A stretch of 60,609 nucleotides of DNA from a virus: IMG/VR virus record IMGVR_UViG_3300027749_000121, positions 1-60,609 of that record, one strand, 5' to 3'. Shown in pieces: positions 12,410 to 24,902 of the stretch (positions within the stretch are counted from its first letter, which is position 1; the number at the start of each line of letters is the position of its first letter). The translations under genes and the position numbers were made by a program. Below the pieces are notes generated by a model that was not told the DNA's origin, searched no databases, and saw only the letters and a list, made by a program, of their open reading frames with translations.

Positions 12410-12442
12410 TGCTTCTCCTTGATGGTTTCAGTTGCCATCTTC

Positions 12443-12474
12443 AGCCCCGGACATAAGCACCCGGGGCTTTTTTT
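12443..12474 (+). terminator. Rho-independent terminator upstream of the early promoter
   Basis: The 8-bp stem AGCCCCGG/CCGGGGCT with a 10-base loop is followed by seven T on the plus strand. There is no plus-strand gene upstream until the inserted cassette at 2.7-3.5 kb, so it either blocks antisense read-through into the early region or ends a short plus-strand RNA. A weak promoter-like pair (TTGTTG at 12356, TACACT at 12379) lies about 60 bases upstream. Confidence 0.75.
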
Positions 12475-12483
12475 ATATGGTAT

Positions 12484-12499
12484 TGTCCAACGTTTGACA
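12484..12499. promoter_or_regulatory. Operator-like dyad TGTC-N8-GACA, copy 1
   Basis: TGTCCAACGTTTGACA is palindromic except at one position pair. Its last six bases are the -35 hexamer of the early promoter, so a protein bound here would block RNA polymerase. Two related dyads lie at 19352-19367 and 28018-28033. Confidence 0.5.
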
Positions 12500-12524
12500 T
12501 GGTACCTTGGAAATTTTTTATAAT
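12494..12524 (+). promoter_or_regulatory. Early promoter, sigma70-like
   Basis: A perfect TTGACA (12494-12499) is followed by TTTATA with 17-base spacing, overlapping TATAAT with 19-base spacing (12519-12524). It is the best promoter match seen in the window and points at the plus-strand gene set starting at 12768. The transcript would start near 12530 and carry a leader of about 240 bases. Confidence 0.7.
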
Positions 12525-12528
12525 TTTT

Positions 12529-12727
12529 GGGGGGTGGGGTGTTTGGGTCTTGTTTTTTGAAAAATGTGATTTGCGGGTGTGGAACAGTGTTCATGCGCGC
12601 GGTGGGACTCCGACTATACAGCTGGGGGTGGGGGATGGGTGGGGTTTAGGGATAGCCAAAATGACCTTTGCCAAACCCCCCATATGGATACTGAAAGTGT
12701 TGATTAGCAATAGTGCTGAGCAACAAC
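12529..12727 (+). promoter_or_regulatory. G-rich early leader, G-quadruplex-prone, no gene
   Basis: The gene-free stretch 12410-12767 holds the terminator, dyad and promoter listed separately, and this leader. The plus strand has three G-tracts at 12529-12547 and five tracts of three or more G at 12624-12651 with loops of one to four bases, a classical quadruplex pattern. GGGGTTT at 12641-12647 can alternatively pair with AAACCCC at 12673-12679. An ORF across the leader was rejected. Confidence 0.55.
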
Positions 12728-12743
12728 GGGGAAAGGTTTCCCC
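12728..12743 (+). repeat. GGGGAAA-NN-TTTCCCC palindrome, copy 1
   Basis: The copy reads GGGGAAAGGTTTCCCC and lies 25 bases before the ATG at 12768, upstream of that gene's ribosome site. It is the only copy with no gene before it. Confidence 0.85.
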
Positions 12744-12767
12744 ATTCAATCCACTTAGGAGATAGTC

Positions 12768-13190
12768 ATGTCAGTTAAAACAAATGTAGCTCTGTTCTGC
12801 AAAGCAGGTGTAACCAAAGCCGAAGCCATCGATGCGCTCAAGCGTGACCCGAGCCTCAAGCGCAAAGCCAAGGACACATTGCGTGTGTTGCTGTTGCCGT
12901 TCGTGGCAGAGTTCTGGAAGAAGGATGGCGGCTCGTTGCTCAAGGATGGCGAGGGCAAAGCCAAGGGCACACAGGTCTTGGATAGTAGCCACAAGAACTA
13001 TGAGAACGCTAAGCGTGATCTGTACGATATCGTCAAGGCGATATCAAGCGGATCAAGTGGCAAGAAGGAAGCCATCGAGATACCTGCCGAGTTAATTGCC
13101 GCCGCCGAGAAGCTAGCTAAGCTATCCAAGAAGTATGAGCAATCTCGCAGTCTTGCTAACAAAGCTGTGGCTGAAGCGTTTGCTCAATAA
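12768..13190 (+). CDS. Unknown early protein, first gene of the plus-strand set
   Basis: The 140-residue protein is basic and helical, with a start pattern VTKAEAIDALKRDPSLKRKAK and a C-terminal helix rich in Ala, Lys and Glu. AGGAG precedes the ATG at suitable spacing. Being the first gene after the early promoter, it could be a host-takeover or regulatory protein. No family was recognised. Its TAA stop lies inside a TCAATAATC motif at 13184-13192. Confidence 0.65.
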   Translation: MSVKTNVALFCKAGVTKAEAIDALKRDPSLKRKAKDTLRVLLLPFVAEFWKKDGGSLLKDGEGKAKGTQVLDSSHKNYENAKRDLYDIVKAISSGSSGKKEAIEIPAELIAAAEKLAKLSKKYEQSRSLANKAVAEAFAQ

Positions 13191-13192
13191 TC
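13184..13192. repeat. TCAATAATC motif at a stop codon
   Basis: This single copy overlaps the stop codon of the gene 12768-13190. It belongs to the repeat family whose centre is the 20-bp palindrome at 13775-13794. Confidence 0.5.
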
Positions 13193-13197
13193 ACAAT

Positions 13198-13213
13198 GGG
13201 GAAAAGTTTCCCC
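13198..13213 (+). repeat. GGGGAAA-NN-TTTCCCC palindrome, copy 2
   Basis: The copy reads GGGGAAAAGTTTCCCC and starts 8 bases after the stop of the preceding gene. It is followed by GTTCTTCC rather than the commoner ATTCTTTT. Confidence 0.85.
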
Positions 13214-13283
13214 GTTCTTCCATGGCGGTGCAAGCATGAGGCTTGCCCGCTGTTTCATTTCTTGTCCAATCCAAACTCGGGAG

Positions 13284-13292
13284 TCAATAATC
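13284..13292. repeat. TCAATAATC motif abutting a start codon
   Basis: The nine bases directly precede the ATG at 13293 and form the whole spacer after the ribosome site. The same arrangement recurs before the ATG at 14147. Confidence 0.5.
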
Positions 13293-13451
13293 ATGTTCAC
13301 AATTATCGTTCGCAACAACGGCATCACCCACGAATACAAAACCGAATCACAAAGCGATGCTCGTGTTTTGTTCCACGCCTTGACTGTAACCTTCCTCCAT
13401 GTAGAAGCGTGGCTTGGCTCAGAGCTAGTTCAAGAATACAAGAACTGCTAA
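13293..13451 (+). CDS. Small unknown early protein
   Basis: The 52-residue protein starts MFTIIVRNNGITHEYKTESQ and looks like a small alpha/beta fold. I chose the ATG at 13293, with GGGAG nine bases ahead, over an upstream ATG at 13236 that lacks a ribosome site. The spacer between GGGAG and ATG is exactly the repeat TCAATAATC. Confidence 0.5.
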   Translation: MFTIIVRNNGITHEYKTESQSDARVLFHALTVTFLHVEAWLGSELVQEYKNC

Positions 13452-13526
13452 TCCGCAGGGATTTCTACAAGCATAGCGTGCTGTGCTTGTGGGGCTATCC
13501 TGCCCAATACGATCAAGGAGATCACC

Positions 13527-13748
13527 ATGTACCAACTATTCAACCAATACCGCACCAAAGAAGTAGGCATCGTGCAAATCGGCGCTCGTGAGTATCACTT
13601 GCAATACCACTACCCCAATGGCGGTAGCAACTACGTTGTCTACGTCTTCAGCACGAACCTAGCGGAACGTGGGCGTGTGTTCAGCACCGATGAAGCAGCA
13701 CTCGAATGGATAGGCAAACAACCCACACAACTGCCCCTGTTCTCTTGA
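13527..13748 (+). CDS. Small unknown early protein
   Basis: The 73-residue protein begins MYQLFNQYRTKEVGIVQIG and ends with a Pro-rich QLPLFS. AAGGAG lies at good spacing before the ATG. The pattern with an aromatic-rich strand pair (YHLQYHYPNGGSNYVVYVF) suggests a small beta-rich fold. The stop is three bases from palindrome copy 3. Confidence 0.6.
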   Translation: MYQLFNQYRTKEVGIVQIGAREYHLQYHYPNGGSNYVVYVFSTNLAERGRVFSTDEAALEWIGKQPTQLPLFS

Positions 13749-13750
13749 AT

Positions 13751-13766
13751 GGGGAAAGGTTTCCCC
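13751..13766 (+). repeat. GGGGAAA-NN-TTTCCCC palindrome, copy 3
   Basis: The copy reads GGGGAAAGGTTTCCCC and lies two bases after a stop codon, at the left edge of the gene-free stretch to 14146. It is followed by ATCACT, so it has no T-run. Confidence 0.85.
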
Positions 13767-13774
13767 ATCACTAT

Positions 13775-13794
13775 GATTATTGACGTCAATAATC
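13775..13794. repeat. Perfect 20-bp palindrome, GATTATTGAC and its mirror
   Basis: The sequence is GATTATTGAC joined to its exact reverse complement. It is made of two head-to-head TCAATAATC motifs, the same nine bases found singly at 13184, 13284, 14138, 14193, 14664 and 14773 (and eight of nine at 14460). A dimeric DNA-binding protein is the expected partner. Confidence 0.75.
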
Positions 13795-13908
13795 TTGTTT
13801 TTTCACGATATCCATGTGTATTGCGTACTGGACGATCAGGTAGACACCTCGCAAGCCGCATGAATGCTAGCGTGGCTCAAAAAAGTGTCATCTTATCTAT
13901 CTTTTTAA

Positions 13909-13926
13909 TATATATATATATATATA
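13909..13926. repeat. (TA)9 dinucleotide run
   Basis: Nine consecutive TA units in a gene-free region. Such runs melt easily and can form cruciforms, which fits an origin unwinding element. Confidence 0.7.
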
Positions 13927-14069
13927 GAAGTATATTTATGGGGGGTAGCTCTTTTTCTTTTGCTTGGACTTCTTTTAAAAGACAAGCCCAAGTGCTCTCC
14001 CCAAAAAAGGTAGATAGCTTGCCACATTTATCAAGCAAGCCAGTATTCATGCGGTCTAGCGGGTGTCTA

Positions 14070-14107
14070 CCGAATTGTCCGCTACTATATACACAGGACA
14101 GATTCGG
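14070..14107. repeat. Inverted repeat upstream of the gene at 14147
   Basis: CCGAATTGTCC (14070-14080) faces GGACAGATTCGG (14096-14107), complementary apart from one inserted base. The 15-base loop is AT-rich (ACTATATACA). The inner half-sites TGTCC/GGACA resemble those of the TGTC-N8-GACA dyads. It may be an operator or a stem-loop. Confidence 0.5.
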
Positions 14108-14137
14108 GGTAAAATGTCCACTTGTACTTTGAAAGGA

Positions 14138-14146
14138 TCAATAATC
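14138..14146. repeat. TCAATAATC motif abutting the start codon at 14147
   Basis: The nine bases fill the gap between AAGGA and ATG, as at 13284-13292. They could position the ribosome or bind a regulator of translation or transcription. Confidence 0.5.
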
Positions 14147-14842
14147 ATGTACGAAACATACCTCAACCTCACGCCAAACGAGCTTCATCAAAGATTATTG
14201 AAGCGCAACCGACACCCATCCGAGATCACGCAGATCAAAGACACAGTCGCTCAGATGAAGGAAAAGATGCGTGTCGACAAGATCACACGCCATCAGCGCA
14301 AGCTTGCATGGGACAACGTACTCAAACCGCTACGCTACGAACTCAACAGTGCCAAGGTTGGGCGTGCCTACGATCTCGATGATGAAGATCGTGTTGAGGT
14401 GTTCGATGCGTACATCGCTGTGATGGAGAAGCTATTAAACCGCTTTGCACACCCATCAAGATTATTGGAGCAAACGCCCATGCAACTGGGCAAGGACAAG
14501 AACTTACCTAACGATGGTGAGCATTGGACTGACTGGATACCGCACCGAATCAAGACGCCCATAGCCGAGGCGTTCTACGCCCTACCGCATAAGGCGAAGG
14601 CTAAGCGCAAACTACCCTTCCAACGCACGATGCTGCTCGATCAGCACGCCAAGGCAAAGCTAAGATTATTGAAGTCTACAAACAAAGAACTAGACACGCT
14701 CGAACGCAGACAGGCGGTCGCACCAACCGATGAGCGCACAGATAAGCTGGGGCGTATACGCAAAGCCATCAAGATTATTGACGCTATGCAACCACATGAT
14801 GTAGTACCCGCAACATGGAACACCTTAGATTTGGGAGAGTGA
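14147..14842 (+). CDS. Unknown basic protein carrying internal TCAATAATC-type repeats
   Basis: I use the ATG at 14147, preceded by AAGGA at nine-base spacing; an in-frame ATG at 14063 has no ribosome site. The 231-residue protein is Lys/Arg/His-rich and helical, with a distinctive WTDWIPHRIKTPIAEAFYALP in the middle. No known domain was recognised. Three copies of the nine-base repeat and one eight-base copy lie inside the gene, in two different frames (coding RLLK-like and KIID), which suggests selection on the DNA. A replication or DNA-binding role is plausible by position only. Confidence 0.6.
   Translation: MYETYLNLTPNELHQRLLKRNRHPSEITQIKDTVAQMKEKMRVDKITRHQRKLAWDNVLKPLRYELNSAKVGRAYDLDDEDRVEVFDAYIAVMEKLLNRFAHPSRLLEQTPMQLGKDKNLPNDGEHWTDWIPHRIKTPIAEAFYALPHKAKAKRKLPFQRTMLLDQHAKAKLRLLKSTNKELDTLERRQAVAPTDERTDKLGRIRKAIKIIDAMQPHDVVPATWNTLDLGE
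14193..14781. repeat. GATTATTGA motifs inside a coding region
   Basis: Reverse-oriented copies are at 14193-14201, 14664-14672 and 14773-14781, with an eight-base copy at 14460-14467. All are preceded by AA or AAA. The copy at 14773 is in a different codon frame from the other three, so codon use alone does not explain the repeat. Confidence 0.5.
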
Positions 14843-14868
14843 GCACGACCAATGTCTGCTCTCACAAC

Positions 14869-14884
14869 GGGGAAAACTTTCCCC
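14869..14884 (+). repeat. GGGGAAA-NN-TTTCCCC palindrome, copy 4
   Basis: The copy reads GGGGAAAACTTTCCCC, lies 27 bases after a stop codon and is followed by ATTCCCTTTTTA. It precedes the ribosome site of the gene at 14962. Confidence 0.85.
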
Positions 14885-14961
14885 ATTCCCTTTTTACCCC
14901 TCGGTCTCGGCGCTTGGGCAATGCCGATGACCATCCTCAAACTGCCTACAAGGAGAAGGCT

Positions 14962-15252
14962 ATGACTTATGAAAACGCAGCAAAAGAGTGGATAGAAAGT
15001 TCGCCATATGTGGACATCCCTGTTGGGCGGTTCACGCTCAGATTCAAATTGACCATCGACAGAGATTGGGGCTGGGTTTGGGAACACATGACGTGGATCC
15101 TCGCAGGAAAAGAATACTGGGAATCGCCAGAGGAAACGTACTTCGATGGTATTTACGACGAAATGAACGCAGACCTACACGATATGTCGTTCATAGATGA
15201 GTTGTTAGAGGCAATGCAGAAGAAACCATTTAACCAAGGAGAAAGCAAATGA
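14962..15252 (+). CDS. Unknown acidic early protein
   Basis: The start chosen is the ATG at 14962 with AAGGAG at good spacing, rather than the longer ORF from 14815. The 96-residue protein is acidic and Trp-rich (DRDWGWVWEHMTWILAGKEYWE). The stop overlaps the next start by four bases, so it starts a three-gene operon after palindrome copy 4. No family was recognised. Confidence 0.6.
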   Translation: MTYENAAKEWIESSPYVDIPVGRFTLRFKLTIDRDWGWVWEHMTWILAGKEYWESPEETYFDGIYDEMNADLHDMSFIDELLEAMQKKPFNQGESK

Positions 15253-15473
15253 CCAAAGTCAAACACAAGACAAACGTGCAACTTATCAACGGACTCATGA
15301 CGCACTCACAAAAAGGCGTGCTCATGCAGGCATTCATCATCGAGGCTATCGCCAAGTACGCAGAGCAGACCAAAGTGTCCCCTGCTTGGGCGAATGAGGG
15401 CTTCATAAGCGAAGCCGCATGGCGTGCGTGTGCTGACGAGGCGCTGGATGCAATCAACAACAGGAGTTTGTAA
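15249..15473 (+). CDS. Small conserved early protein of unknown function
   Basis: The 74-residue helical protein contains MTHSQKGVLMQAFIIEAIAKY and a C-terminal SEAAWRACADEALDAINNRS. I associate this pattern with small proteins of aquatic phages, without known function. Both ends overlap neighbouring genes by one to four bases, indicating translational coupling. Confidence 0.6.
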   Translation: MTKVKHKTNVQLINGLMTHSQKGVLMQAFIIEAIAKYAEQTKVSPAWANEGFISEAAWRACADEALDAINNRSL

Positions 15474-15712
15474 TGAGAGTAATACGTATCCGTATACACG
15501 GGAGATACACAGCCCCGTTCAATAACCCGTTCACGGCTAACGCCCTTGTCATGCCAGTTGAGTTATCCGACTCGATGCGTGACGATGTGCTGAAGAAGTA
15601 CCACGACACGTTCTACGTGTTCAATGCGGGTGACCCAATCGTAGGTGAGCATCGCACCTTCGAGGTGTATTCGTTCGATGTAATAGATGACATGGAGGTA
15701 GCCCTAGCCTGA
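15473..15712 (+). CDS. Small unknown early protein
   Basis: The 79-residue protein starts MRVIRIRIHGRYTAPFNNPF and ends in an acidic DVIDDMEVALA. The start overlaps the preceding stop by one base. It is the last gene before palindrome copy 5 and the amidoligase gene. No family was recognised. Confidence 0.55.
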   Translation: MRVIRIRIHGRYTAPFNNPFTANALVMPVELSDSMRDDVLKKYHDTFYVFNAGDPIVGEHRTFEVYSFDVIDDMEVALA

Positions 15713-15740
15713 GCAACAGGCGCTGTTAGTTTGTTAGTTC

Positions 15741-15756
15741 GGGGAAAGCTTTCCCC
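15741..15756 (+). repeat. GGGGAAA-NN-TTTCCCC palindrome, copy 5
   Basis: The copy reads GGGGAAAGCTTTCCCC, a perfect 16-bp palindrome, followed by ATTCTTTTTATA. It lies between the stop at 15712 and the ribosome site of the amidoligase gene. Confidence 0.88.
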
Positions 15757-15784
15757 ATTCTTTTTATACATCAAGGAGAAACGT

Positions 15785-17875
15785 ATGTTTCAAATAACTA
15801 GATTCGTGATGGAAGATTTCATTGACTCACTTGAGCAGACGATCTACATCGTATCCCTCAACAAGCGGTACATGGTGTACAACGCATCTCGTAGGCGTCT
15901 CGTCTGCTCAGATGTGCTGCACATGGATGCGGGTCTTGCACCTCTCGATCTGATTACGACAGGCAACCTGTGCGTGTGGACTCGTACCTCACGCTATCGT
16001 GTCAAGGGTGAGGGTGCTTTTGCGCCATCGCACATCACGTACAGATTAGCTGTTGTCGAGAGCCGTGATCGCTACGATATGCATCAGATGATGCGCAGGT
16101 TGTTGACACCCGCAAGCATTGCAGATATGCCGCGGTTTGATCGTAACCTGTTGTCTACTCGTGTCGATGCAGTCGTTGAGTCGTATGCCAAGAAGCACGA
16201 CCCCAGTGTAAACCAGTCACCGCCTATCCCAAGCGCTAAGTTCAAGGACTTCTGGTACTACGATCACAGCCGTGACTACTTCAAGATTGCTCGCAAGCAC
16301 TACTTAGACTTCGGACGGCTTGTTGCTCGTGCCAAGGCAGGCGATGAGTCCATCACCAACGATGAGCTTCGCACTGCGTTCTTTGAATTGTCTGGTCGTT
16401 ACAGCGATGCCTCTGACCATATCGAGAATGCGTTCAATGCTATCGAGGGCATGGGTGACATGGGCATTGTGCACTGCGACTGCGGTCACTACGAGGACGA
16501 GGGCAACACACACGAGGTGCGTAACGATACATGGTGCGACTCGTGCTACGACGATGACGCTGTGTATGTCGAGGATCTGGATGAGTACTGGCCTCGTGAC
16601 GATGCGTACTACTGCGATGGCGATGACTGCTACTACTCGTATGAGCGCAACGATGATGACGATGATGACGATGAAGACCCCGATGACACACCCATCATGT
16701 CGTACTCTACCAACGTGCTTCATGTGCTTGACTATCCATCGGGCATCACGTCTTCGCACTTCGGTGAGTTCACGATGGGCATCGAGCTTGAGATGACGTC
16801 TGGCGACAACGACTCTCAATCGTCTGCTGAGTCTGTGCGTAGCCGTTTGGGTTCCACATACTGCATCATCAAGAGTGACGGCTCGCTTCCATACAATGGC
16901 TTCGAGGTTGTGACTACACCGCAAGGTCTAGCCAAGCACATCGAGGTGTTCAAAGCGTGGGAGATTGACCCAGCCTATCGTGCATGGAACACAGGCAAGT
17001 GCGGTATGCACGTACACATTGACTCTCGTGCCTTCACGCAGTTGACTGTTGGCAAGTTCCTCATGTTCATCAACAGCAGTGGCAACGTCGACTTCATTCG
17101 CAAGATTGCAGGTCGCCATCCATCTGTCGATGACCAAGCCCGTAGCTACTGCGCCGCTGAGCATCAGTCCATACTTGCCAACCCCAAGACTGCGGTCAAG
17201 GGTAAGTCTGGTGAGCGCTATCGCATGGTCAATATGTGCAACCTCGGCAGTCGTGAGGCTAGGCGTCTGGGTCTTAGCATGGACAACAGCTACAACGGCA
17301 AGTACAACACTGTCGAGCTTCGCATCTTCCGTGCTTCGCTCAAGAAGGAACGTCTGCTTGCACAGATCGAGTTCACCCATGCCGCTGTCATGTTCTGCCG
17401 TGTCGCATCGTGGCGTGATCTCAACGGCACATCTTTCGTCAAGTGGCTCAAGACTGTGGCGGGTCAGTACCCTGCGCTGACTAAGTGGTATGGCGTGCGC
17501 AATGTACACACATCCACACCGACAGTCATAGCGCCAGCTATGGACACTTGCACTGACGCTGTGCCCCCTGCGCCTTGGCAACCCCACCATACGGAAGACA
17601 GGCATGACCGCGAGTACCCAGTGCACATACCCTACGACAACGAGGCTGAGACCTTGAGATCGTGGGTACGGCGTAACGATCTGTACTTCCGCTTCGCTAC
17701 CTACGCAGGCTCTGAGTATGCGTACTTCCCCTACGGGGGCGGTGACTTAGATCGCATCAGTGAGGATGATGTTGTCTATATGCGTGTCGGTGAACTGTGG
17801 GTTCTTATGAATGAGTCCTTCGCCGCCACGATGGCGCAGTGCTCGTACACAGTGTCTGAAGAGCAACCTGTTTAA
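15785..17875 (+). CDS. Amidoligase-like protein (COOH-NH2 ligase family)
   Basis: The ATG at 15785 follows AAGGAG; an upstream in-frame ATG reads through the palindrome and was rejected. The 696-residue protein has an unknown N-terminal region (1-220), a Cys/Asp-rich metal-binding segment around 230-310 (HCDCGHYED, WCDSCYDDD and an Asp run), and from about 331 an Amidoligase_2-like core: GIELEMTS, then KSDGSL, GFEVVTTPQ and CGMHVHID near 405-412. Such enzymes use ATP to join a carboxylate to an amine. The class II amidotransferase coded next door could supply ammonia or remodel the amide. The substrate is unknown; candidates are peptides, cell-wall precursors or a protein tail. Confidence 0.75.
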   Translation: MFQITRFVMEDFIDSLEQTIYIVSLNKRYMVYNASRRRLVCSDVLHMDAGLAPLDLITTGNLCVWTRTSRYRVKGEGAFAPSHITYRLAVVESRDRYDMHQMMRRLLTPASIADMPRFDRNLLSTRVDAVVESYAKKHDPSVNQSPPIPSAKFKDFWYYDHSRDYFKIARKHYLDFGRLVARAKAGDESITNDELRTAFFELSGRYSDASDHIENAFNAIEGMGDMGIVHCDCGHYEDEGNTHEVRNDTWCDSCYDDDAVYVEDLDEYWPRDDAYYCDGDDCYYSYERNDDDDDDDEDPDDTPIMSYSTNVLHVLDYPSGITSSHFGEFTMGIELEMTSGDNDSQSSAESVRSRLGSTYCIIKSDGSLPYNGFEVVTTPQGLAKHIEVFKAWEIDPAYRAWNTGKCGMHVHIDSRAFTQLTVGKFLMFINSSGNVDFIRKIAGRHPSVDDQARSYCAAEHQSILANPKTAVKGKSGERYRMVNMCNLGSREARRLGLSMDNSYNGKYNTVELRIFRASLKKERLLAQIEFTHAAVMFCRVASWRDLNGTSFVKWLKTVAGQYPALTKWYGVRNVHTSTPTVIAPAMDTCTDAVPPAPWQPHHTEDRHDREYPVHIPYDNEAETLRSWVRRNDLYFRFATYAGSEYAYFPYGGGDLDRISEDDVVYMRVGELWVLMNESFAATMAQCSYTVSEEQPV

Positions 17876-17891
17876 TTCAACAACAACCAAC

Positions 17892-17907
17892 GGGGAAAAC
17901 TTTCCCC
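17892..17907 (+). repeat. GGGGAAA-NN-TTTCCCC palindrome, copy 6
   Basis: The copy reads GGGGAAAACTTTCCCC and is followed by ATTCTTTTAC. It separates the amidoligase and amidotransferase genes. Confidence 0.88.
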
Positions 17908-17933
17908 ATTCTTTTACATCAAGGAGTTTTATT

Positions 17934-19040
17934 ATGTGTCTAATTATTACTGGCAAGTCTTCCACAGTTCGTTCAACCCTGCTCAACACACACGGGCTAC
18001 TGAGCGACATCTTCACAGCCAACCCTGACGGCATTGGGTTCATGTATGGTTCAGCCAAGGGACTCAAGGTCACTAAGAACCTGCCCAAGAATCTTGGCGA
18101 TGCTACTGCATTCATTCAGCGTCTGCCGCAAGACGATCGTGAGATTGCCATCCACTTCCGCTGGACTACACACGGCAAGACTGACATGGTTAACTGCCAT
18201 CCGTATGATGTGATTCCTGGCTTCATCGCCATGATGCACAACGGCATCCTGCATACAGGCAATGCTGCTGACAAAGACAAGTCAGATACATGGCACTTCA
18301 TCAATGACTACTTGCACAGCGCTGTGTCTGCTTCACCAGACCTTGTGTATGACGCAGGCTTCGTTGCTATGCTGGAGGAGTTCATCGGCAACAATCGCTT
18401 CGTGTTCATGAATGGCGAGGGTCGTATGCAACACGTCAACTTCGATCAGGGTATCGAGCATGATGATATGTGGTTCAGCAATACCTATGCTTGGACTCCA
18501 TCACGCCTGATCCCTAGCTACAAGAGTGCGACACTCAAGTCGTACAAGTATGCCAGTAGCTATGGTAGCTACATGGACGACGAGTACGACGAGATGTATG
18601 ACTACAACGCAAGCTTCGGTATCAAGCCTCGCTTGGTCAGCGCACACAGCGCCAACTACGACGAGACAGCGTATGACTTTCCAGATGACGAGGATGGCTT
18701 CGTGCAGCCTACCCCTGACGACATTGCCGTTGCGCTGACTGAGGCTGACGTAGAGACTGTTGAAGTATGGCTTGACCAGATGCCTGCGTACACAATCACT
18801 ACGCTACTGCACTGCTACACGCCTTCGCCTCTTAGCTACACACATCGTGACGACTTGTGTTTTGCCGAGCAGGGTATCTACGATATGTTGATGGAGGGTG
18901 ATGCGTCTGGTCTTATCAGTTCAGTGACCAAGTCGTATGGCACAGTCGGCATCGTTGCCGAGGTGATGTGCTACTACCTGCAATGGGATGTGCGCACACC
19001 TGTGACATTCAAGCCAACCTTGCCTGCACTGTTGACTTGA
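17934..19040 (+). CDS. Class II glutamine amidotransferase-like protein
   Basis: The ATG at 17934 follows AAGGAG, and the resulting N-terminus MCLIITG puts the catalytic Cys at position 2, as required for Ntn hydrolases that expose it by Met removal. Further matches are the HFRWTTHG block at 74-81, NCHP at 87-90 and the HNG at 102-104, all standard for GATase II domains. The fold covers about residues 1-200. The C-terminal 170 residues are acidic and Tyr-rich and not recognised. The domain would hydrolyse glutamine or a related amide. The pairing with the amidoligase suggests a shared pathway. Confidence 0.8.
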   Translation: MCLIITGKSSTVRSTLLNTHGLLSDIFTANPDGIGFMYGSAKGLKVTKNLPKNLGDATAFIQRLPQDDREIAIHFRWTTHGKTDMVNCHPYDVIPGFIAMMHNGILHTGNAADKDKSDTWHFINDYLHSAVSASPDLVYDAGFVAMLEEFIGNNRFVFMNGEGRMQHVNFDQGIEHDDMWFSNTYAWTPSRLIPSYKSATLKSYKYASSYGSYMDDEYDEMYDYNASFGIKPRLVSAHSANYDETAYDFPDDEDGFVQPTPDDIAVALTEADVETVEVWLDQMPAYTITTLLHCYTPSPLSYTHRDDLCFAEQGIYDMLMEGDASGLISSVTKSYGTVGIVAEVMCYYLQWDVRTPVTFKPTLPALLT

Positions 19041-19046
19041 TTCGTA

Positions 19047-19070
19047 GTGGGGGCTTGCCCCCACATTTTT
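19047..19070 (+). terminator. Rho-independent terminator after the amidotransferase gene
   Basis: GTGGGGG-CTTG-CCCCCAC is a 7-bp stem with a 4-base loop, followed by ATTTTTAAA. It holds the same place between genes as the GGGGAAA palindromes and has a similar T-run, which supports an RNA hairpin role for those as well. Confidence 0.75.
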
Positions 19071-19087
19071 AAACCAAGGAGAAGTAA

Positions 19088-19258
19088 ATGAAATACCGCG
19101 TACAAGTAGTTATGTCCTACTGGCAGACAGTAGAGGTCGAAGCCGACAACAGTACCGATGCTGCAAACAAGGCGTTCGATGAGTTTGATATTAAGAAAGC
19201 CCACGTTGGGGAAGGCGAGACTCACGCTATTGAGTTAATAGAAGGAGAATCAGAATGA
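19088..19258 (+). CDS. Small unknown early protein
   Basis: The 56-residue protein begins MKYRVQVVMSYWQTVEVEAD and looks like a small alpha/beta fold with a repeat-like Ala-rich helix (DAANKAFDEF). AAGGAG lies before the ATG. The stop overlaps the next start (ATGA), so the tiny membrane protein that follows is probably coupled to it. No family was recognised. Confidence 0.6.
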   Translation: MKYRVQVVMSYWQTVEVEADNSTDAANKAFDEFDIKKAHVGEGETHAIELIEGESE

Positions 19259-19347
19259 TGACACCATGGGAAAAACTAGAAAGAGTAGTACTTTTGTTAT
19301 CCGTGATTGTACTAATACTGGATCTTTTATACTGGAGACCCTATTGA
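19255..19347 (+). CDS. 30-residue single-pass membrane peptide
   Basis: The ORF starts in the preceding stop (ATGATG) and codes a 30-residue peptide with one hydrophobic helix, VVLLLSVIVLILDLLYW, flanked by a charged N-terminal part. AGGAG lies at suitable spacing. Such peptides can regulate membrane proteins or act in host takeover. The role is unknown. Confidence 0.5.
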   Translation: MMTPWEKLERVVLLLSVIVLILDLLYWRPY

Positions 19348-19351
19348 CTTC

Positions 19352-19367
19352 TGTCTACTCTTGGACA
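19352..19367. promoter_or_regulatory. Operator-like dyad TGTC-N8-GACA, copy 2
   Basis: TGTCTACTCTTGGACA, followed by AATAAT, matches 19 of 23 bases of the region around copy 3 (28018-28033). It lies between a stop codon and the next ribosome site. Confidence 0.4.
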
Positions 19368-19393
19368 AATAATATCAACTCAAGGAGAAAATA

Positions 19394-19612
19394 ATGAACA
19401 GCCCACCCTACGATACAGGTAAGGTCAAGATAGGCTTGACTTACGCACCCCCACCCCCTGAATCTACGCCTGAATCCGACTGGATACAGGGCATATTGCT
19501 TGGCGACAAGCAGGGGATGGATGATCTACTACTCACCACAATACAGTCCCTCGGACTTATCGCTTTCATCGTTATCGTCATGCTACTAACAGGAGGAACC
19601 TCAAATGCCTGA
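19394..19612 (+). CDS. Small membrane protein, C-terminal anchor
   Basis: The 72-residue protein has a Pro-rich N-terminus (YAPPPPESTPESDW) and a C-terminal hydrophobic segment SLGLIAFIVIVMLLT, so the N-terminal part would face one side of the inner membrane. AAGGAG precedes the ATG. The stop overlaps the next start by eight bases. Together with the 30-residue membrane peptide upstream it forms a small membrane pair. No function is known. Confidence 0.6.
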   Translation: MNSPPYDTGKVKIGLTYAPPPPESTPESDWIQGILLGDKQGMDDLLLTTIQSLGLIAFIVIVMLLTGGTSNA

Positions 19613-20276
19613 CATGCAAACCGCCCTCAAGACCGCACTTAGCACAACCTTACAGGAATGGGATGACGATGGGGAAAGTTTTCCCCATTCTCCTTCTGTT
19701 CAACCAGTGTCATCTTCTTTATCGCCACCAACTCAAGGAATTCCCATGACCAAGCAGCTCTTTCCAATTAAAAATAACATCACTCGCGTCACGTTTAACT
19801 ACATCCGAGACAACCCCGGATCCACACGCAAAGAGATCATCACTGCGCTTGAGCATCAGGACTACAACAGCGGATCAACTTCGTCGCTAATTTCGCAACT
19901 GCGTAAGAATGGTCTGGTGCACATGACCAACGATCTGTACTATGCGGATGCAGATGAGTACGCGCCACTCAAGAAAGTGAAACCTCTGAAAAGCAACGGA
20001 CTCAAACCCGCACGAGAGCCTTTTGCTAAGCGTAAGTACGAGAAGAAAGCCGTGACAGGCATCGGTGCGTTACTACGCGAGAAGCTGCAAGCCATGCCAG
20101 AGCCTAGCAAAGAAGCGCTGGATGCAGCTATGAGAGCGATGGAACCTGCGCATATACCCAACAGACGCTACACATCCCTCGTACGCACCAAGACGCCACA
20201 CGATATATTGCAGGACATGACTGTGTATCAGGCGCATGAGTTGTACGTTCACTTGAAACAGATGTTCGGGGGCTGA
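19605..20276 (+). CDS. Winged-helix-like DNA-binding protein
   Basis: Two starts are credible. ATG 19605 has a strong AGGAGG and gives 223 residues. ATG 19746 has AAGGA and gives 176 residues, and it begins just before the conserved part. The region from residue 55 (counting from 19605) reads as a winged helix: TFNYIRDNPGSTRKEIITAL, then SLISQLRKNGLVH. The C-terminal half is basic and unknown. Palindrome copy 7 lies inside the first 30 codons of the long form, which favours 19746 as the start of the ancestral gene. A transcription regulator is the likely role. Confidence 0.6.
   Translation: MPDMQTALKTALSTTLQEWDDDGESFPHSPSVQPVSSSLSPPTQGIPMTKQLFPIKNNITRVTFNYIRDNPGSTRKEIITALEHQDYNSGSTSSLISQLRKNGLVHMTNDLYYADADEYAPLKKVKPLKSNGLKPAREPFAKRKYEKKAVTGIGALLREKLQAMPEPSKEALDAAMRAMEPAHIPNRRYTSLVRTKTPHDILQDMTVYQAHELYVHLKQMFGG
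19671..19686 (+). repeat. GGGGAAA-NN-TTTCCCC palindrome, copy 7
   Basis: The copy reads GGGGAAAGTTTTCCCC and is followed by ATTCTCCTTC. It is the only copy within a longer open frame, where it would code GESFPH. Confidence 0.85.
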
Positions 20277-20277
20277 C

Positions 20278-20460
20278 ATGGATGAAGAAACAAGAGAGAT
20301 GGACTTGCAGTTGGCCGAGCTTGATGTAGAAGTCAAACGGCTACGCAGGATTGAGCAAGCCGCCCATGCTGTGATGAAAGCGTTTGGCAACAGCATTGAC
20401 TACAACACATGGGACAAGGCGCTTGATGCGCTTGAAACTGTACTCAAGGAGAAACCATGA
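20278..20460 (+). CDS. Small coiled-coil protein
   Basis: The 60-residue acidic protein is almost wholly helical (LQLAELDVEVKRLRRIEQAA). It begins one base after the preceding stop and overlaps the next ORF by four bases. No family was recognised. Confidence 0.55.
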   Translation: MDEETREMDLQLAELDVEVKRLRRIEQAAHAVMKAFGNSIDYNTWDKALDALETVLKEKP

Positions 20461-20612
20461 TCGAGTTAACTTGGGATGCTGAAAGCGGCGAAGGCGCTGT
20501 ACACATCAACAAAGACTTTGTGCTTGCGCACCGCATAGTTCAGTTGGATGCACTGACTGACTGGATCGCAGAACTTCAAGAACTTTATAACGCAATGCTG
20601 GAGAAGCCATGA
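20457..20612 (+). CDS. Small unknown protein
   Basis: This 51-residue ORF starts and ends in four-base ATGA overlaps with its neighbours, a strong sign of a real coupled gene despite its size. It begins MIELTWDAESGEGAVHIN and has a C-terminal helix. No family was recognised. Confidence 0.55.
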   Translation: MIELTWDAESGEGAVHINKDFVLAHRIVQLDALTDWIAELQELYNAMLEKP

Positions 20613-20812
20613 CAGAAGCACAACTAAATGTATGGGAGAAAGCCTTGGGCTGGCGCAAGCGTCAGATGATTAAGGGGCAGATCACCAATGAAGTCACGCG
20701 CAAGATTCGCAACGATGCGCTTGAGGAAGTGGCGCGTGAGTTCGATGATATGAAAAACTCTGGTGACACCGCCCCAAGCTTCGCGGCATACGTGCGGGGC
20801 ATGAAAACATGA
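20609..20812 (+). CDS. Small unknown helical protein
   Basis: The 67-residue protein is helical and basic in its first half (WEKALGWRKRQMIKGQ) and overlaps both neighbours by four bases. The pattern with EEVAREFDDMKNSGD is reminiscent of small phage proteins of unknown function. Confidence 0.55.
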   Translation: MTEAQLNVWEKALGWRKRQMIKGQITNEVTRKIRNDALEEVAREFDDMKNSGDTAPSFAAYVRGMKT

Positions 20813-21039
20813 AAGGGAATTATGTTAAAGAGAACCTTGCTGCTTATTCGGTCACACGCGCACTTAACAAGTACCGTGCAACCCGAAAGAAGTTGTGTTG
20901 GAAATGCCAAAAAGACAAACCGCAATTCGGTGGTTGTGCCCAAGTGATGGATGGTTTTGGCGGTAACGTTCACAAGTTTATATGCGGAGACTGTATAGCT
21001 GCCAAAGAGAAAGAAAGGAGTCTGAAACTTGAAAAGTAA
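20809..21039 (+). CDS. Zinc-ribbon-like small protein
   Basis: The 76-residue protein has a C-x2-C pair (LCWKCQKDKP) and a second C-x2-C pair (FICGDCIAAKEKE) with an extra Cys between them, a layout typical of small zinc-binding domains. It probably binds nucleic acid or protein. It overlaps the neighbours on both sides. Confidence 0.6.
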   Translation: MKGNYVKENLAAYSVTRALNKYRATRKKLCWKCQKDKPQFGGCAQVMDGFGGNVHKFICGDCIAAKEKERSLKLEK

Positions 21040-21340
21040 TCACAACATCATTCGTGAGCTACTCAAACGACACCCCGATGGTTTGAAGTCAAGCGATATA
21101 GCTAAGTTTACTGGCATAGACGTTCGCTCTGTCAACAAATCATTGGAGGGTGTGTTTGGTGTGTACGTTGATCGGTGGGAGTTAGCAACCCACCGCAATA
21201 CATTAGCCGCCGTTTGGGTTGTGGTCGATGTACCTGTAAACTGCCCAAAACCAGAAAACACAGGAAGAAGATCGCGTGAGCGAATACGCAACCCTGATGA
21301 CGCTATATTTTTAAACAAAAGGAGAGAGATCAATGACTAA
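21029..21340 (+). CDS. Winged-helix-like protein, TTG start
   Basis: The 103-residue protein starts at TTG 21029, eight bases after AAGGAG. The N-terminal 40 residues look like a small helix-turn-helix or winged helix (IIRELLKRHPDGLKSSDIA, then GIDVRSVNKSLEG). The C-terminal third is basic. It may regulate phage or host transcription. No close family was recognised. Confidence 0.55.
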   Translation: MKSNHNIIRELLKRHPDGLKSSDIAKFTGIDVRSVNKSLEGVFGVYVDRWELATHRNTLAAVWVVVDVPVNCPKPENTGRRSRERIRNPDDAIFLNKRREIND

Positions 21341-21575
21341 AGACATAGAAGAAACACGCGCAATGCAACAACGAATGGAGCAAGTTGAATTGACGGCAAA
21401 CAAACTACAAACCGTGTTGGTAGGCACAGAAAGTTATATAGGTATTGGCGCGTTGATTAGTTATTTAGGTCAAGTTGCGTACGACGCAAAAATGCCGCTT
21501 GACATGGTAGTAGCAGGGCTTATAACTGTTTTTGACGCGTGTGAAAAGAAAGATAAAGATGGCAGAAACACCTGA
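21333..21575 (+). CDS. Small unknown helical protein
   Basis: The 80-residue protein starts MTKDIEETRAMQQRMEQVEL and is mostly helical, with a hydrophobic middle (GIGALISYLGQVAYDA) that is too short and polar to be a clear membrane segment. It overlaps the previous gene by eight bases and the following nuclease gene by 17. Function unknown. Confidence 0.55.
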   Translation: MTKDIEETRAMQQRMEQVELTANKLQTVLVGTESYIGIGALISYLGQVAYDAKMPLDMVVAGLITVFDACEKKDKDGRNT

Positions 21576-21870
21576 ATGGAAAGTAAAGAAGGCGGTACGG
21601 CTGTTGCTTGACAGGCTAGGCGTGTACCACTTCATGCCCCCTGCTAACGGCTTTGGCCGCGCAGGGATACCCGACATCATTGGCTGTATGGATGGGCATT
21701 TCATCGCCATCGAGTGCAAAGCAGGCAAAAACAACACAACGCCACTGCAAGACAGGGAACTTAACATGATCCTCAACGCAGGCGGTACTGTGTTCATTGC
21801 CCGTGAGCACAACATACCAGACCTAGAACTATTACTGAAGGAGAAACAAAATGAACTACGTGGAACCTGA
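21559..21870 (+). CDS. VRR-NUC domain nuclease
   Basis: I use ATG 21559; a TTG at 21532 would add nine residues. The 103-residue protein has the compact PD-(D/E)XK fold of VRR-NUC proteins: an N-terminal helix (WKVKKAVRLLLDRLG), GRAGIPDIIGCMDGHFIAIECKAG with the catalytic D and E-x-K, then a helix with QDRELNMILNAGG and VFIAR. Stand-alone phage versions are thought to act as DNA repair or Holliday junction nucleases. It lies upstream of the polymerase and helps define the replication-recombination module. Confidence 0.87.
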   Translation: MAETPEWKVKKAVRLLLDRLGVYHFMPPANGFGRAGIPDIIGCMDGHFIAIECKAGKNNTTPLQDRELNMILNAGGTVFIAREHNIPDLELLLKEKQNELRGT

Positions 21871-22147
21871 CTTCGCAATGACAGACGAAGAGCTACACCG
21901 CAGAGTCGAGGCCATGTCAGACGATGAGCAAGAGCACTTCAGACTACTGATCCACAAGTTGGTGATGTGCTACGGCCAAGGCAAGGCGCAGGGCATTGTC
22001 ATCATTGGACGCGCTGAAGATCAATTAGCAGGAGTCGTCACCCTAAACTGTGACGAGATGGAGGCGTCGCAACTCATGTTGGCGGCAAACGATTTTTTCG
22101 GCTTTCTAAACGTCCTCGACGCACCACCCAAGGAGAATTTTAATTGA
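21851..22147 (+). CDS. Unknown acidic protein
   Basis: The 98-residue protein starts MNYVEPDFAMTDEELHRRVE and has a strand pattern GIVIIGRAEDQLAGVVTLNC. Both ends overlap neighbours, so it is translated in the same string. No family was recognised. Confidence 0.55.
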   Translation: MNYVEPDFAMTDEELHRRVEAMSDDEQEHFRLLIHKLVMCYGQGKAQGIVIIGRAEDQLAGVVTLNCDEMEASQLMLAANDFFGFLNVLDAPPKENFN

Positions 22148-22413
22148 CACAAGATGAAATCATTAAGATGGCTAGACAGGCGGGCTTTATTGACGCTGAT
22201 TGGAACATGTGGATGGTTCTTCCGCACCTTGAAGACTTTGCCAAGCTAGTAGCACAGCATGAGCGTGAGGCGTGTGCAGTGGCGGCGGAGAAAGAATCAC
22301 TGCGTGGGTTACCTGAAGAACAACCCGAGGGCGAAGCATTACTACGCGCCTGTGCGCAGATTGCGGGTGGGGTTCTTATTGCCGACGCCATCCGAGCAAG
22401 GGGACAAGCATGA
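22144..22413 (+). CDS. Small unknown protein, TTG start
   Basis: The 89-residue protein starts at TTG 22144, eight bases after AAGGAG. It contains MARQAGFIDADWNMWMVLPH and LEDFAKLVAQHEREACAVAA, a pattern common in small phage proteins of the EAC type with unknown function. It overlaps the next start by four bases. Confidence 0.6.
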   Translation: MTQDEIIKMARQAGFIDADWNMWMVLPHLEDFAKLVAQHEREACAVAAEKESLRGLPEEQPEGEALLRACAQIAGGVLIADAIRARGQA

Positions 22414-22637
22414 CTGACTGTCCAAACTGTGAGTACCACAGGAAACGAGCACAACTGTGGCGTGAGGAAGCCTACAAGCAAGCAGGGCATCCGTTGCCTG
22501 AGCGTGGTTGGGTAGGGCTGACGGATGGAGATATTGCCGAAATATATAACCAAAAAGATTGGGACATTCACACCAATTGGGATTATGAAAGAGCCATTGA
22601 AGCCAAACTCAAGGAGAAGAACCATGCTAGTCCGTAA
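22410..22637 (+). CDS. Small Cys-containing unknown protein
   Basis: The 75-residue protein begins MTDCPNCEYHRKRAQLWREE, with a single C-x2-C pair near its start, and has a middle part PLPERGWVGLTDGDIAEIYN. It overlaps both neighbours by a few bases. Function unknown. Confidence 0.6.
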   Translation: MTDCPNCEYHRKRAQLWREEAYKQAGHPLPERGWVGLTDGDIAEIYNQKDWDIHTNWDYERAIEAKLKEKNHASP

Positions 22638-22905
22638 GGTCAGAGGCGAAGACAAGGTGGGCAAGATTACTTTGCTTGCGTCTGAAGTGGCAATGGTTCG
22701 AAAGATAGGCATACCGATCGAGAAGTATGTAACGGCAAGGCTTGTACAGATTGCCAAAGAACGCAGATGGAAGTGGTATTTCAACAAGAGAGAAGTTGTG
22801 CTTGGCTCTTATGGCGGGCATCACGATCGTGTTGGGTTTGTGTACAAAGACACAGGACTACCGCCTACACAGGCAGAGATAGATAACAAGGAGAAGAACA
22901 GTTGA
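22624..22905 (+). CDS. Small unknown basic protein before the polymerase
   Basis: I use ATG 22624, which follows AAGGAG, rather than the longer frame from 22525. The 93-residue protein is basic and begins MLVRKVRGEDKVGKITLLAS. The pattern LASEVAMVRKIGIPIEKYV suggests an alpha/beta fold. It overlaps the polymerase start by four bases. Confidence 0.55.
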   Translation: MLVRKVRGEDKVGKITLLASEVAMVRKIGIPIEKYVTARLVQIAKERRWKWYFNKREVVLGSYGGHHDRVGFVYKDTGLPPTQAEIDNKEKNS

Positions 22906-24887
22906 CCAAACCGTTTGACAAAATAATAACCATCGACTTCGAAACCTACTGGGACACCAAGGAAGGTTACACACTGAGCAAGATGACAACTGAGGAGTAC
23001 ATACGCCATGATAAATTTAGAGCGTTCGGAGCTTGCGTCCATGTATACGGAAGCGATGAACCAATTAGATGGTTTGGAGATGCAGAGCTACGTGAGTACC
23101 TTGATGGGGTCGACTGGGGACGAACCGCAGTGCTTGCCCATAACGCACAGTTCGATGTATCCATTATGGAGTGGGTCTACGCTGTACATCCAGCCTTCAT
23201 CTTCGACACGTTATCAATGGCGCGAGCTCTCAGAGGCGTTGAGGTTGGCAACAGTCTCGCCAAACTTGCAATCGATTTTGATCTTCCCGCCAAAGGGACA
23301 GCCGTACACAGCACCAATGGTGTGGCCGAGTTGGACGAGGTCTTGGAATCTGAGCTTGCAGACTATTGCAAACACGACGTATATCTATGCGAACGAATCT
23401 TTGAGCGCTTGGTCAATGGATACCCGTCCAAGGAACTTCGGCTCATAGATATGACGCTGAAGATGTACACCCGTGCGTGCCTTGAGCTTGACCCCAACAT
23501 GCTGACTGACGCCATACTAGATGAAAAGGAAAAACGTGAAGCACTATTACAGAAGCTCGGCGTGGACGAAACTGCACTTGCGTCGAACCCACAGTTTGCA
23601 GCACTACTTGAAACCCTCAGTGTGGCTCCCCCAAAGAAAGTCAGTAAAACTACCGGGAAAGAAACACTTGCATTGGCTAAGAATGATGCCCTCTTTCAGG
23701 CGTTGCTCAACGGTGAACGTGAGGACGTTGCCCTTCTTTGTGAAGCGCGTCTTAGGGTTAAGTCGACCACTGAGCGTACCCGTGCTCAGCGGTTCCTCGA
23801 CATTAGTAAACGTGGCGCCTTACCAGTACCTCTCTCCTACTACGGTGCGCAGACTGGCCGGTGGACAGCAAGCAAGGGTTCGGCCATCAACATGCAGAAC
23901 CTCAAGCGAGGCTCGTTCCTACGCAAAGCGATTATGGCTCCCGCTGGTCATCAATTGGTCGTGGGGGACTTATCACAGATTGAACCGCGAGTGCTCGCGT
24001 GGCTTTCGGATTACACAGACATGCTCGACATCTTCCGCTCAGGTGGTGACCCTTACGCCGCTTTCGGCGCTCAGATGTTCAACATCCCAAATCTCACCAA
24101 AGAAACTCACCCAGATCTTCGACAGTCTGCGAAGTCTGCGCTCCTTGGGTGCGGGTACGGCCTCGGTTGGGCAGCGTTTGCATCGCAACTTCTCACAGGG
24201 TTCCTCGGGGCACCGCCTCAGCGTTACGACCTTGCTTTCGCAAAGAAGTTGGGCGTTACGCAACAAGCCGCGGAGAAGTTCCTAGACTGGGAAGTCAACG
24301 TCGAGAAGCTCAACGCTATCCCGCACACCTGTACCACCAGAGAACTAGTCATCCACTGCCTAGCATCCAAGGCGATCATTGATAAGTACAGGGCTACAGC
24401 CACCCCCGTAGTTGAGTTTTGGGACTTGCAAACCCAGCTTATCAACGAGTCCCTTTACAAAGGGAAGGAGTACAAGCACAAGTGTTTGACGTACCGCAAG
24501 GGGGAGATCGTGCTACCTTCTGGCATGAAGCTGTTGTACCCTGACCTCAACATCAGGCGCTACACGGACGAGAAAACAAATAAAGAGCAGGTCGAGTGGA
24601 CATACGGCCAAGATCGTACTAAGATATATGCAGGCAAGATAACCAACAATGTCACGCAGGGCGTAGCGAGATGCGTAATGACAGATGGTATGGTGCGTAC
24701 TGCCAAGAGATACTTTGTAGCGGGAACAGTGCATGACGAGCAGATCGTCGTGGTTCCTGATGCAGAGGTGTCTGAGGCTAAGACTTGGGTCTTAGCGCAG
24801 ATGACTATGGAGCCGCCCTATATGCAGGGCATTCCATTGGACGCTGACGGTGGCGCGCACCGTAGGTATGGGTTAGCCAAGAGTTAA
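22902..24887 (+). CDS. DNA polymerase, family A, with 3'-5' exonuclease
   Basis: Replicative polymerase candidate of 661 residues, started by TTG 22902 with AAGGAG eight bases ahead. The exonuclease domain has IDFET (D12, E14), a second motif with NAQFD around 87 and YCKHDV near 160. The polymerase part has YYGAQTGRWTASKG, motif A VVGDLSQIEPRVLAW around 353, motif B QSAKSALLGCGYGLGW around 413 and motif C VHDEQIVVV around 610. All catalytic positions expected are present. The sizes of the domains match podovirus and siphovirus PolA enzymes without a 5' nuclease domain. Confidence 0.94.
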   Translation: MTKPFDKIITIDFETYWDTKEGYTLSKMTTEEYIRHDKFRAFGACVHVYGSDEPIRWFGDAELREYLDGVDWGRTAVLAHNAQFDVSIMEWVYAVHPAFIFDTLSMARALRGVEVGNSLAKLAIDFDLPAKGTAVHSTNGVAELDEVLESELADYCKHDVYLCERIFERLVNGYPSKELRLIDMTLKMYTRACLELDPNMLTDAILDEKEKREALLQKLGVDETALASNPQFAALLETLSVAPPKKVSKTTGKETLALAKNDALFQALLNGEREDVALLCEARLRVKSTTERTRAQRFLDISKRGALPVPLSYYGAQTGRWTASKGSAINMQNLKRGSFLRKAIMAPAGHQLVVGDLSQIEPRVLAWLSDYTDMLDIFRSGGDPYAAFGAQMFNIPNLTKETHPDLRQSAKSALLGCGYGLGWAAFASQLLTGFLGAPPQRYDLAFAKKLGVTQQAAEKFLDWEVNVEKLNAIPHTCTTRELVIHCLASKAIIDKYRATATPVVEFWDLQTQLINESLYKGKEYKHKCLTYRKGEIVLPSGMKLLYPDLNIRRYTDEKTNKEQVEWTYGQDRTKIYAGKITNNVTQGVARCVMTDGMVRTAKRYFVAGTVHDEQIVVVPDAEVSEAKTWVLAQMTMEPPYMQGIPLDADGGAHRRYGLAKS

Positions 24888-24902
24888 CAAGGAGAAGCGG
24901 TA

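What the first reader, a model, noticed from the sequence alone, without database searches (positions are those of the whole stretch)
13184..14781. TCAATAATC repeat array with a perfect 20-bp palindrome at its centre
The nine-base motif occurs at 13184, 13284, 13786, 14138 and, in reverse, at 13775, 14193, 14664 and 14773, plus an eight-base copy at 14460. Such a 9-mer should appear far less than once by chance in 1.6 kb. Two copies face each other as a 20-bp palindrome, two directly abut start codons, and the copies inside the gene 14147-14842 occur in two codon frames, so the DNA itself seems to be selected. With the (TA)9 run and inverted repeat nearby, an iteron-like origin or a partition/operator array is plausible.
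Basis: partly seen in the sequence, partly recalled or inferred. Interest (0 to 1): 0.74.

Follow-up and report, generated by a model that had tools for sequence, protein, structure and literature searches.

The report
Nine-base site array around phage origin-like hairpin
A nine-letter DNA word repeated eight times in one 1.6-kb stretch of an uncultured phage is a truly conserved set of binding sites surrounding what looks like the phage's replication start point, and sister phages keep the same layout with a different nine-letter word.

Summary
TCAATAATC occurs 8 times, all within 13184-14781 (0.16 expected in the whole window); two copies form the perfect palindrome 13775-13794. A sister clade (19 loci) has another 9-mer, GCGAAAATC, in the same layout but often on the opposite strand. 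That points to orientation-indifferent double-stranded DNA sites read by a factor whose specificity has changed. The sites flank a ~350-bp intergenic element: a long imperfect inverted repeat around the least stable DNA in the genome (5 of 5 records tested). The element is older than the 9-mer and is usually followed by a homolog of gene 14147, an all-helical protein without known relatives. Best reading: initiator/autoregulator boxes of the phage replication origin (inferred, ~0.5). Rivals: an early-gene operator array; RNA-level control, since the hairpin folds better as minus-strand RNA or ssDNA. Partition and stoperator readings are disfavoured. No binding or replication test was possible.

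The parts
13184..13192 (+). TCAATAATC site overlapping the stop codon of gene 12768-13190
   Evidence: context
13284..13292 (+). TCAATAATC site directly before ATG of ORF 13293-13451
13527..13748 (+). upstream neighbour gene (73 aa); homolog in 80 of 80 motif-bearing loci with enough upstream sequence
13775..13794 (.). perfect 20-bp palindrome of two sites (13775-13783 minus, 13786-13794 plus), left flank of the dyad element; the left site is kept in most relatives at -346 to -389
13815..13906 (.). left arm of the long imperfect inverted repeat
13853..13873 (+). conserved core (AAGCCGCATGAATGCTAGCGT here; AACCCGCNNNNANNCTAGCGT in at least 120 viral stretches)
13890..13940 (.). AT-rich segment, least stable duplex of the genome (DUE-like)
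14004..14095 (.). right arm of the inverted repeat
14088..14115 (+). weak sigma-70-like promoter for gene 14147 (consensus match only)
   Evidence: TATAAT/TAAAAT kept in part of clade 1
14138..14146 (+). TCAATAATC site between Shine-Dalgarno and ATG of gene 14147
14147..14842 (+). gene 14147, 231 aa, basic (pI 9.6), all-helical, no known family; homologs follow the core element in other phages
14193..14201 (-). in-gene site, offset +46
14460..14468 (-). one-mismatch copy CCAATAATC in the gene; not widely conserved
14664..14672 (-). in-gene site, offset +517; codons 173-175 AGA TTA TTG kept in 26-28 of 31 representatives
14773..14781 (-). in-gene site, offset +626; codons 209-211 AAG ATT ATT kept in 31 of 31 representatives

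Best explanation
The copies are asymmetric 9-bp double-stranded DNA binding sites (shown indirectly by comparison) placed around the phage's probable replication origin (inferred). The origin core would be the intergenic element 13785-14137, with its long dyad and a TA-rich segment that should melt first. The sites would load a sequence-specific protein at both flanks of the element and in the neighbouring genes. That protein is most likely the product of gene 14147 or another phage protein evolving with it (inferred). Bound copies would help assemble an initiation complex and melt the TA segment, and the copy covering the ribosome-binding site of gene 14147 would let the protein limit its own expression. 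Shown: the array, its conservation, the concerted motif switch, the conserved dyad, the instability minimum, the co-inheritance with gene 14147. Not shown: the binding protein, origin activity, autoregulation.
For: (1) Clustered, single locus per genome. (2) Retained in all 65 relatives of 42% identity or more: left flank of the element, just before the ATG in most, and in-gene. (3) Codon-level conservation of in-gene copies: TTA 28/31 where 8% elsewhere, ATT 31/31 twice where 13% elsewhere. (4) Sister clade uses GCGAAAATC at -340, -9, about +468 and in the upstream gene, with orientation flipped at the left flank and in the genes, so DNA is read regardless of strand and the recognised word has changed in concert. 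(5) The element has the least stable 50 bp of the genome in 5 of 5 records, 5.6-6.5 sd. (6) Long inverted repeat conserved in structure, not in sequence, also in phages without TCAATAATC. (7) Element and gene 14147 are co-inherited in 52 of 76 core-bearing loci, several of the rest being truncated or chance matches. (8) The phage encodes polymerase, helicase and primase-like proteins but no recognisable initiator. (9) Precedent: lambdoid origins with initiator boxes inside the initiator gene next to an AT-rich tract (PMC7466680).
Against: Sites are not tandem or helically phased. No skew signal at the locus. The fold of protein 14147 matches no initiator or other solved structure. Distant homologs (L074, L075) keep the element but show no comparable 9-mer array, so the boxes are not universal to it. 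In-gene positions differ between clades. Nothing identifies the binder.
Confidence: 0.5

Rival explanations
1. Pure regulatory operator array: a phage or host DNA-binding protein binds the sites to control early genes (roadblock at the start codons of 13293 and 14147), with no role in replication.
For: Sites cover ribosome-binding sites or start codons and gene ends; a promoter-like sequence lies 23 bases upstream of the 14138 site; repressor-site sets that differ between phages exist (stoperators, PMC6550527).
Against: Sites deep inside gene 14147 (+517, +626) and in the 3' part of the upstream gene are unusual for operators; all sites hug one dyad/AT-rich element; no repressor or integrase recognised among scanned ORFs.
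Confidence: 0.28
2. RNA-level system: the dyad is a structured non-coding RNA read from the minus strand, or a single-stranded DNA hairpin used for priming, and the 9-mer acts by base pairing or as part of that RNA.
For: Two-sided covariation. A.C mismatches exceed G.T on the + strand in 27 of 30 diverse sequences with a difference, i.e. G.U on the minus strand. Minus-strand folding better in 27 of 31, RNAalifold -124 vs -115. A weak leftward promoter-like match at 14113-14084.
Against: No Rfam match. Orientation of the 9-mer flips between clades at corresponding places, which pairing would not tolerate. The promoter-like match is near chance level. A biased mutation spectrum could give the same mismatch asymmetry.
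Confidence: 0.12
3. Sites for a host protein (transcription factor or nucleoid protein) hijacked by phages of one host group.
For: The 9-mer is identical across clades whose 14147 proteins differ by almost half.
Against: The sister clade has a different 9-mer in the same layout; the 9-mer matches no binding site known to me (own knowledge, not tested).
Confidence: 0.06
4. Partition (parS-like) centromere of a plasmid-like prophage.
For: Clustered conserved sites in one region.
Against: No ParA/ParB, integrase or telomerase among the scanned ORFs; virion and lysis genes of a virulent-looking phage. Not every small ORF was scanned.
Confidence: 0.02
5. Chance or by-product of conserved amino acids.
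For: In-gene copies encode conserved R-L-L and K-I-I.
Against: Rare codons are fixed at these places; non-coding copies are equally conserved; 0 of 100 shuffles reach 8 copies.
Confidence: 0.01

Closest known systems
Lambdoid phage origin (ori-lambda inside gene O; O-protein iterons plus AT-rich tract)
   Same: Repeated protein-binding words, some inside the coding sequence of the adjacent candidate initiator gene; AT-rich melting segment (PMC7466680).
   Different: Here the words are single 9-mers, dispersed over 1.6 kb in both orientations; the AT-rich part lies in an intergenic long dyad, not in the gene; protein 14147 shows no detectable relation to any known family.
Bacterial oriC with DnaA boxes
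   Same: Asymmetric 9-mers in both orientations around an unwinding element.
   Different: TCAATAATC is not a DnaA box (TTWTNCACA, own knowledge).
Stoperators of Cluster A mycobacteriophages
   Same: Asymmetric sites, alike within a genome, differing between phage groups with their cognate protein (PMC6550527).
   Different: Stoperators are spread over the genome and mostly follow the direction of transcription; here one 1.6-kb cluster, mixed orientation, and no repressor recognised.
Start-associated sequences (SAS/ESAS) of Cluster K mycobacteriophages
   Same: Short conserved words directly before start codons; ESAS inverted repeats differ between subclusters, like the phage-specific palindromes here (PMC3203893).
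   Different: SAS lie upstream of many genes, almost all in one orientation; TCAATAATC also lies inside genes, in both orientations, at one locus.
Phage and plasmid origins built on long hairpins (single-strand origins, phage c2 ori; own knowledge)
   Same: Long imperfect hairpin in a non-coding region.
   Different: No rolling-circle Rep recognised; flanked here by a dedicated 9-mer array.

Membership tests
Iteron-type replication origin | multiple near-identical copies of a specific word at one locus | tested here: met
Iteron-type replication origin | tandem, same orientation, helically phased repeats | tested here: not met
   spacing 11 to 491 bp, 4 forward and 4 reverse
Iteron-type replication origin | adjacent AT-rich unwinding region | tested here: met
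   least stable 50 bp of genome in 5 of 5 records
Iteron-type replication origin | initiator gene next to or overlapping the sites | tested here: inconclusive
   gene 14147 co-inherited with the element but of unknown function and fold
Iteron-type replication origin | initiator binding and autonomous replication | not testable with these tools
   needs EMSA/footprint and plasmid replication assay
DnaA-box oriC | TTWTNCACA boxes | tested here: not met
   the repeated word TCAATAATC differs by inspection
Stoperator system | sites throughout genome, mostly one orientation relative to transcription | tested here: not met
   all sites in 1.6 kb, mixed orientation
SAS | word upstream of the start codons of many genes | tested here: not met
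   only 2 of 8 abut a start codon; others palindromic, in-gene or at a stop
ParABS partition | parA/parB genes | tested here: not met
   none among about 50 ORFs scanned against PHROGs; small ORFs not all scanned
Structured non-coding RNA | conserved fold with compensatory changes | tested here: met
Structured non-coding RNA | member of a known RNA family | tested here: not met
   no Rfam hit at gathering score, none credible at E up to 5
Structured non-coding RNA | transcription of that strand | not testable with these tools
   needs RNA-seq of infected cells; promoter-like match near chance

The most novel reading that the evidence does not exclude
A previously undescribed replicon type of a large group of uncultured ~60-kb phages: a long dyad whose minus strand folds as RNA or ssDNA, wrapped around an extreme melting segment, served by a new all-helical initiator family (gene 14147) and by lineage-specific 9-mer boxes that switch sequence in concert while keeping their places.
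Probability: 0.3. Interest if true: 0.78.

Novelty: new variant of a known kind. Interest (0 to 1): 0.62.

Why it matters
It gives a concrete candidate for the replication origin and initiator of a phage group known only from metagenomes. It also offers a natural experiment in co-evolution: corresponding site positions carry TCAATAATC in one clade and GCGAAAATC in another, so comparing the phage proteins of the two clades could reveal which one reads the sites.

Tried and rejected
Chance (shuffles) and amino-acid constraint (codon analysis) rejected. Plus-strand structured RNA disfavoured. GC-skew test for an origin gave only coding-strand signal. Pfam, PHROGs, NCBIfam, PDB sequence and PDB fold searches with protein 14147 gave nothing; the viral fold library gave only two uncharacterised phage proteins. 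No homolog of protein 14147 in cultured phages or bacterial genomes; no credible DNA match of the element in cultured phages. The upstream gene (12768-type) as sole binder considered unlikely: its family varies between clades that share the motif. The -10 promoter reading of AATAAT in the motif rejected: -35 spacing is not kept and the start would fall inside the gene. A resemblance of CTAGCGT to the CS-6 word (TAGCGT, own knowledge) of rolling-circle single-strand origins was noted and not pursued: the word lies in a stem here, and the search for it gave only plasmid papers.

Full report
OBSERVATION. Every coordinate in the finding checks out. TCAATAATC has 8 exact copies in 60,609 bases, all between 13184 and 14781, against 0.16 expected. 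It is the most over-represented non-trivial 9-mer of the record. Two copies form the perfect palindrome 13775-13794, two end directly before ATG, and the in-gene copies occupy two codon frames.

WHAT THE RECORD IS. The window is a whole IMG/VR virus record. It carries terminase, portal, capsid, ejection and lysis-type genes on the minus strand, and an early block on the plus strand with a DNA polymerase, helicase, exonuclease and a primase/helicase-like protein. The polymerase resembles that of Rhizobium phages of the RHph_TM group and Pseudomonas phage KPP25 only at about 30% identity. No integrase, ParA/B or recognised repressor was found among the ORFs scanned; not all small ORFs were scanned.

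CONSERVATION OF THE ARRAY. Gene 14147 has 68 relatives in viral contigs. All 65 of at least 42% identity carry the 9-mer in the same region: in most, a reverse copy at the left flank of the intergenic element (-346 to -389), usually a forward copy at -9 or -11 before the ATG, and reverse copies inside the gene at about +520 and +630, exactly 109 bp apart where both occur. A further clade (L093-L119) keeps the left flank, the -11 copy and mostly +46, lacks the +520/+630 pair, and has additional copies in the loop or upstream. Of 16 related records searched whole, 15 have the 9-mer. In the 14 that carry gene 14147 relatives of this group, nearly all copies fall in this one locus, with at most one or two elsewhere.

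SELECTION ON THE DNA. Among 31 representatives less than 90% identical, codons 173-175 are AGA-TTA-TTG in 28, 28 and 26, and codons 210-211 are ATT-ATT in all 31. TTA makes up 8% and ATT 13% of the codons for those amino acids elsewhere in the gene. These five codons rank between 2nd and 8th of 105 evaluated columns for conserved unusual codons. Relatedness of the sequences inflates such counts, but other columns share the same tree.

A CONCERTED SWITCH. In a clade about 36% identical in protein 14147 (L255-L273, 19 loci), TCAATAATC is absent and GCGAAAATC occupies the same layout: 3' part of the upstream gene, left flank (-340), RBS (-9), and inside the gene (about +468, sometimes +411); single sites are missing in some members. 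In the upstream gene the two words overlap at the same K-I-I-E codons in L019 and L255. The left-flank and in-gene copies lie on the opposite strand from those of the window. That argues against RNA pairing and for double-stranded DNA sites. A change at all places together is what a trans-acting reader with altered specificity would leave.

THE ELEMENT BETWEEN THE SITES. The 350 bp between the left-flank site and the -9 site form a long imperfect inverted repeat: about 80 Watson-Crick pairs, folding z about -9. Stem pairs change on both sides between clades, for example A-U in 25 and U-A in 24 sequences. The structure persists in most phages examined that lack TCAATAATC. Its centre holds the least stable 50 bp of the whole genome: 6.2 sd in the window and 5.6-6.5 sd in four other records. 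In 52 of the 76 loci inspected a homolog of protein 14147 was detected near it, mostly starting 150-330 bp downstream; the weakest matches are near the E = 0.01 limit. Several loci without a hit end soon after the core. Element and gene are thus an inherited module that is more widespread than the 9-mer.

DNA OR RNA. On the + strand A.C mismatches in the stem outnumber G.T in 27 diverse sequences against 3 with the reverse (227 against 105 mismatches in all), and the minus strand folds better in 27 of 31. The stem may therefore act as minus-strand RNA or as single-stranded DNA, but strand-biased mutation could mimic this. Promoter-like matches are near chance and no Rfam family fits.

PROTEIN 14147. 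It is basic and predicted all-helical with good confidence (pLDDT 88.5). No solved fold matches; the viral library returns two uncharacterised uncultured-phage proteins, and no family library recognises it. No homolog was found in cultured phages or bacterial genomes.

INTERPRETATION. A melting-prone segment in a conserved dyad, a co-inherited gene of unknown function, and a dedicated box array that also covers that gene's ribosome-binding site fit a replication origin with initiator boxes and autoregulation, as in lambdoid phages (PMC7466680). This remains an inference. The arrangement is not a classical iteron array, skew gives no support, and a pure operator array cannot be excluded. Stoperators (PMC6550527) and SAS (PMC3203893) resemble it in single respects but fail on distribution and orientation.

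Noticed in passing
window 12728, 13198, 13751, 14869, 15741, 17892, 19671: Seven perfect palindromes GGGGAAANNTTTCCCC, most just after or between early genes. Related phages have other palindrome families at the same places (e.g. L143 TTGGGGGTA..TACCCCCAA, L182 CCGTGAGACA, L216 CTGGGAACAC, L172 ACTTGCAGAC), similar within a genome and different between genomes. Terminators, operators or ESAS-like elements.
   Followed up: partly
upstream gene, L012 -1155..-742, L036 -1255..-707, L115 -1535..-1125 relative to the ATG of the 14147 homolog: A C-terminal module (about ..EIIDAGLTxAQFNxLLAQLRxxVxFQ) that carries 9-mer sites (two of them 72 bp apart in several phages) is attached to N-terminal parts that look unrelated in different phages.
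   Followed up: partly
arms of the dyad element, L093-L119 versus L018-L071: Repeated GTCC/GGAC boxes in the arms of most clades appear as GCCA/TGGC boxes in one clade, possibly a second co-evolving site set.
   Followed up: no
window 3915-47280: CCGAAGCTA occurs 8 times (0.34 expected), spread over the late genes.
   Followed up: no
window 12413-24888: CAAGGAGAA occurs 11 times, apparently the standard Shine-Dalgarno stretch of the early genes.
   Followed up: no
window 32991-41633: A single 2880-aa ORF on the minus strand, near a gene with a weak DNA-ejection-protein match (43434-44663); not annotated.
   Followed up: no
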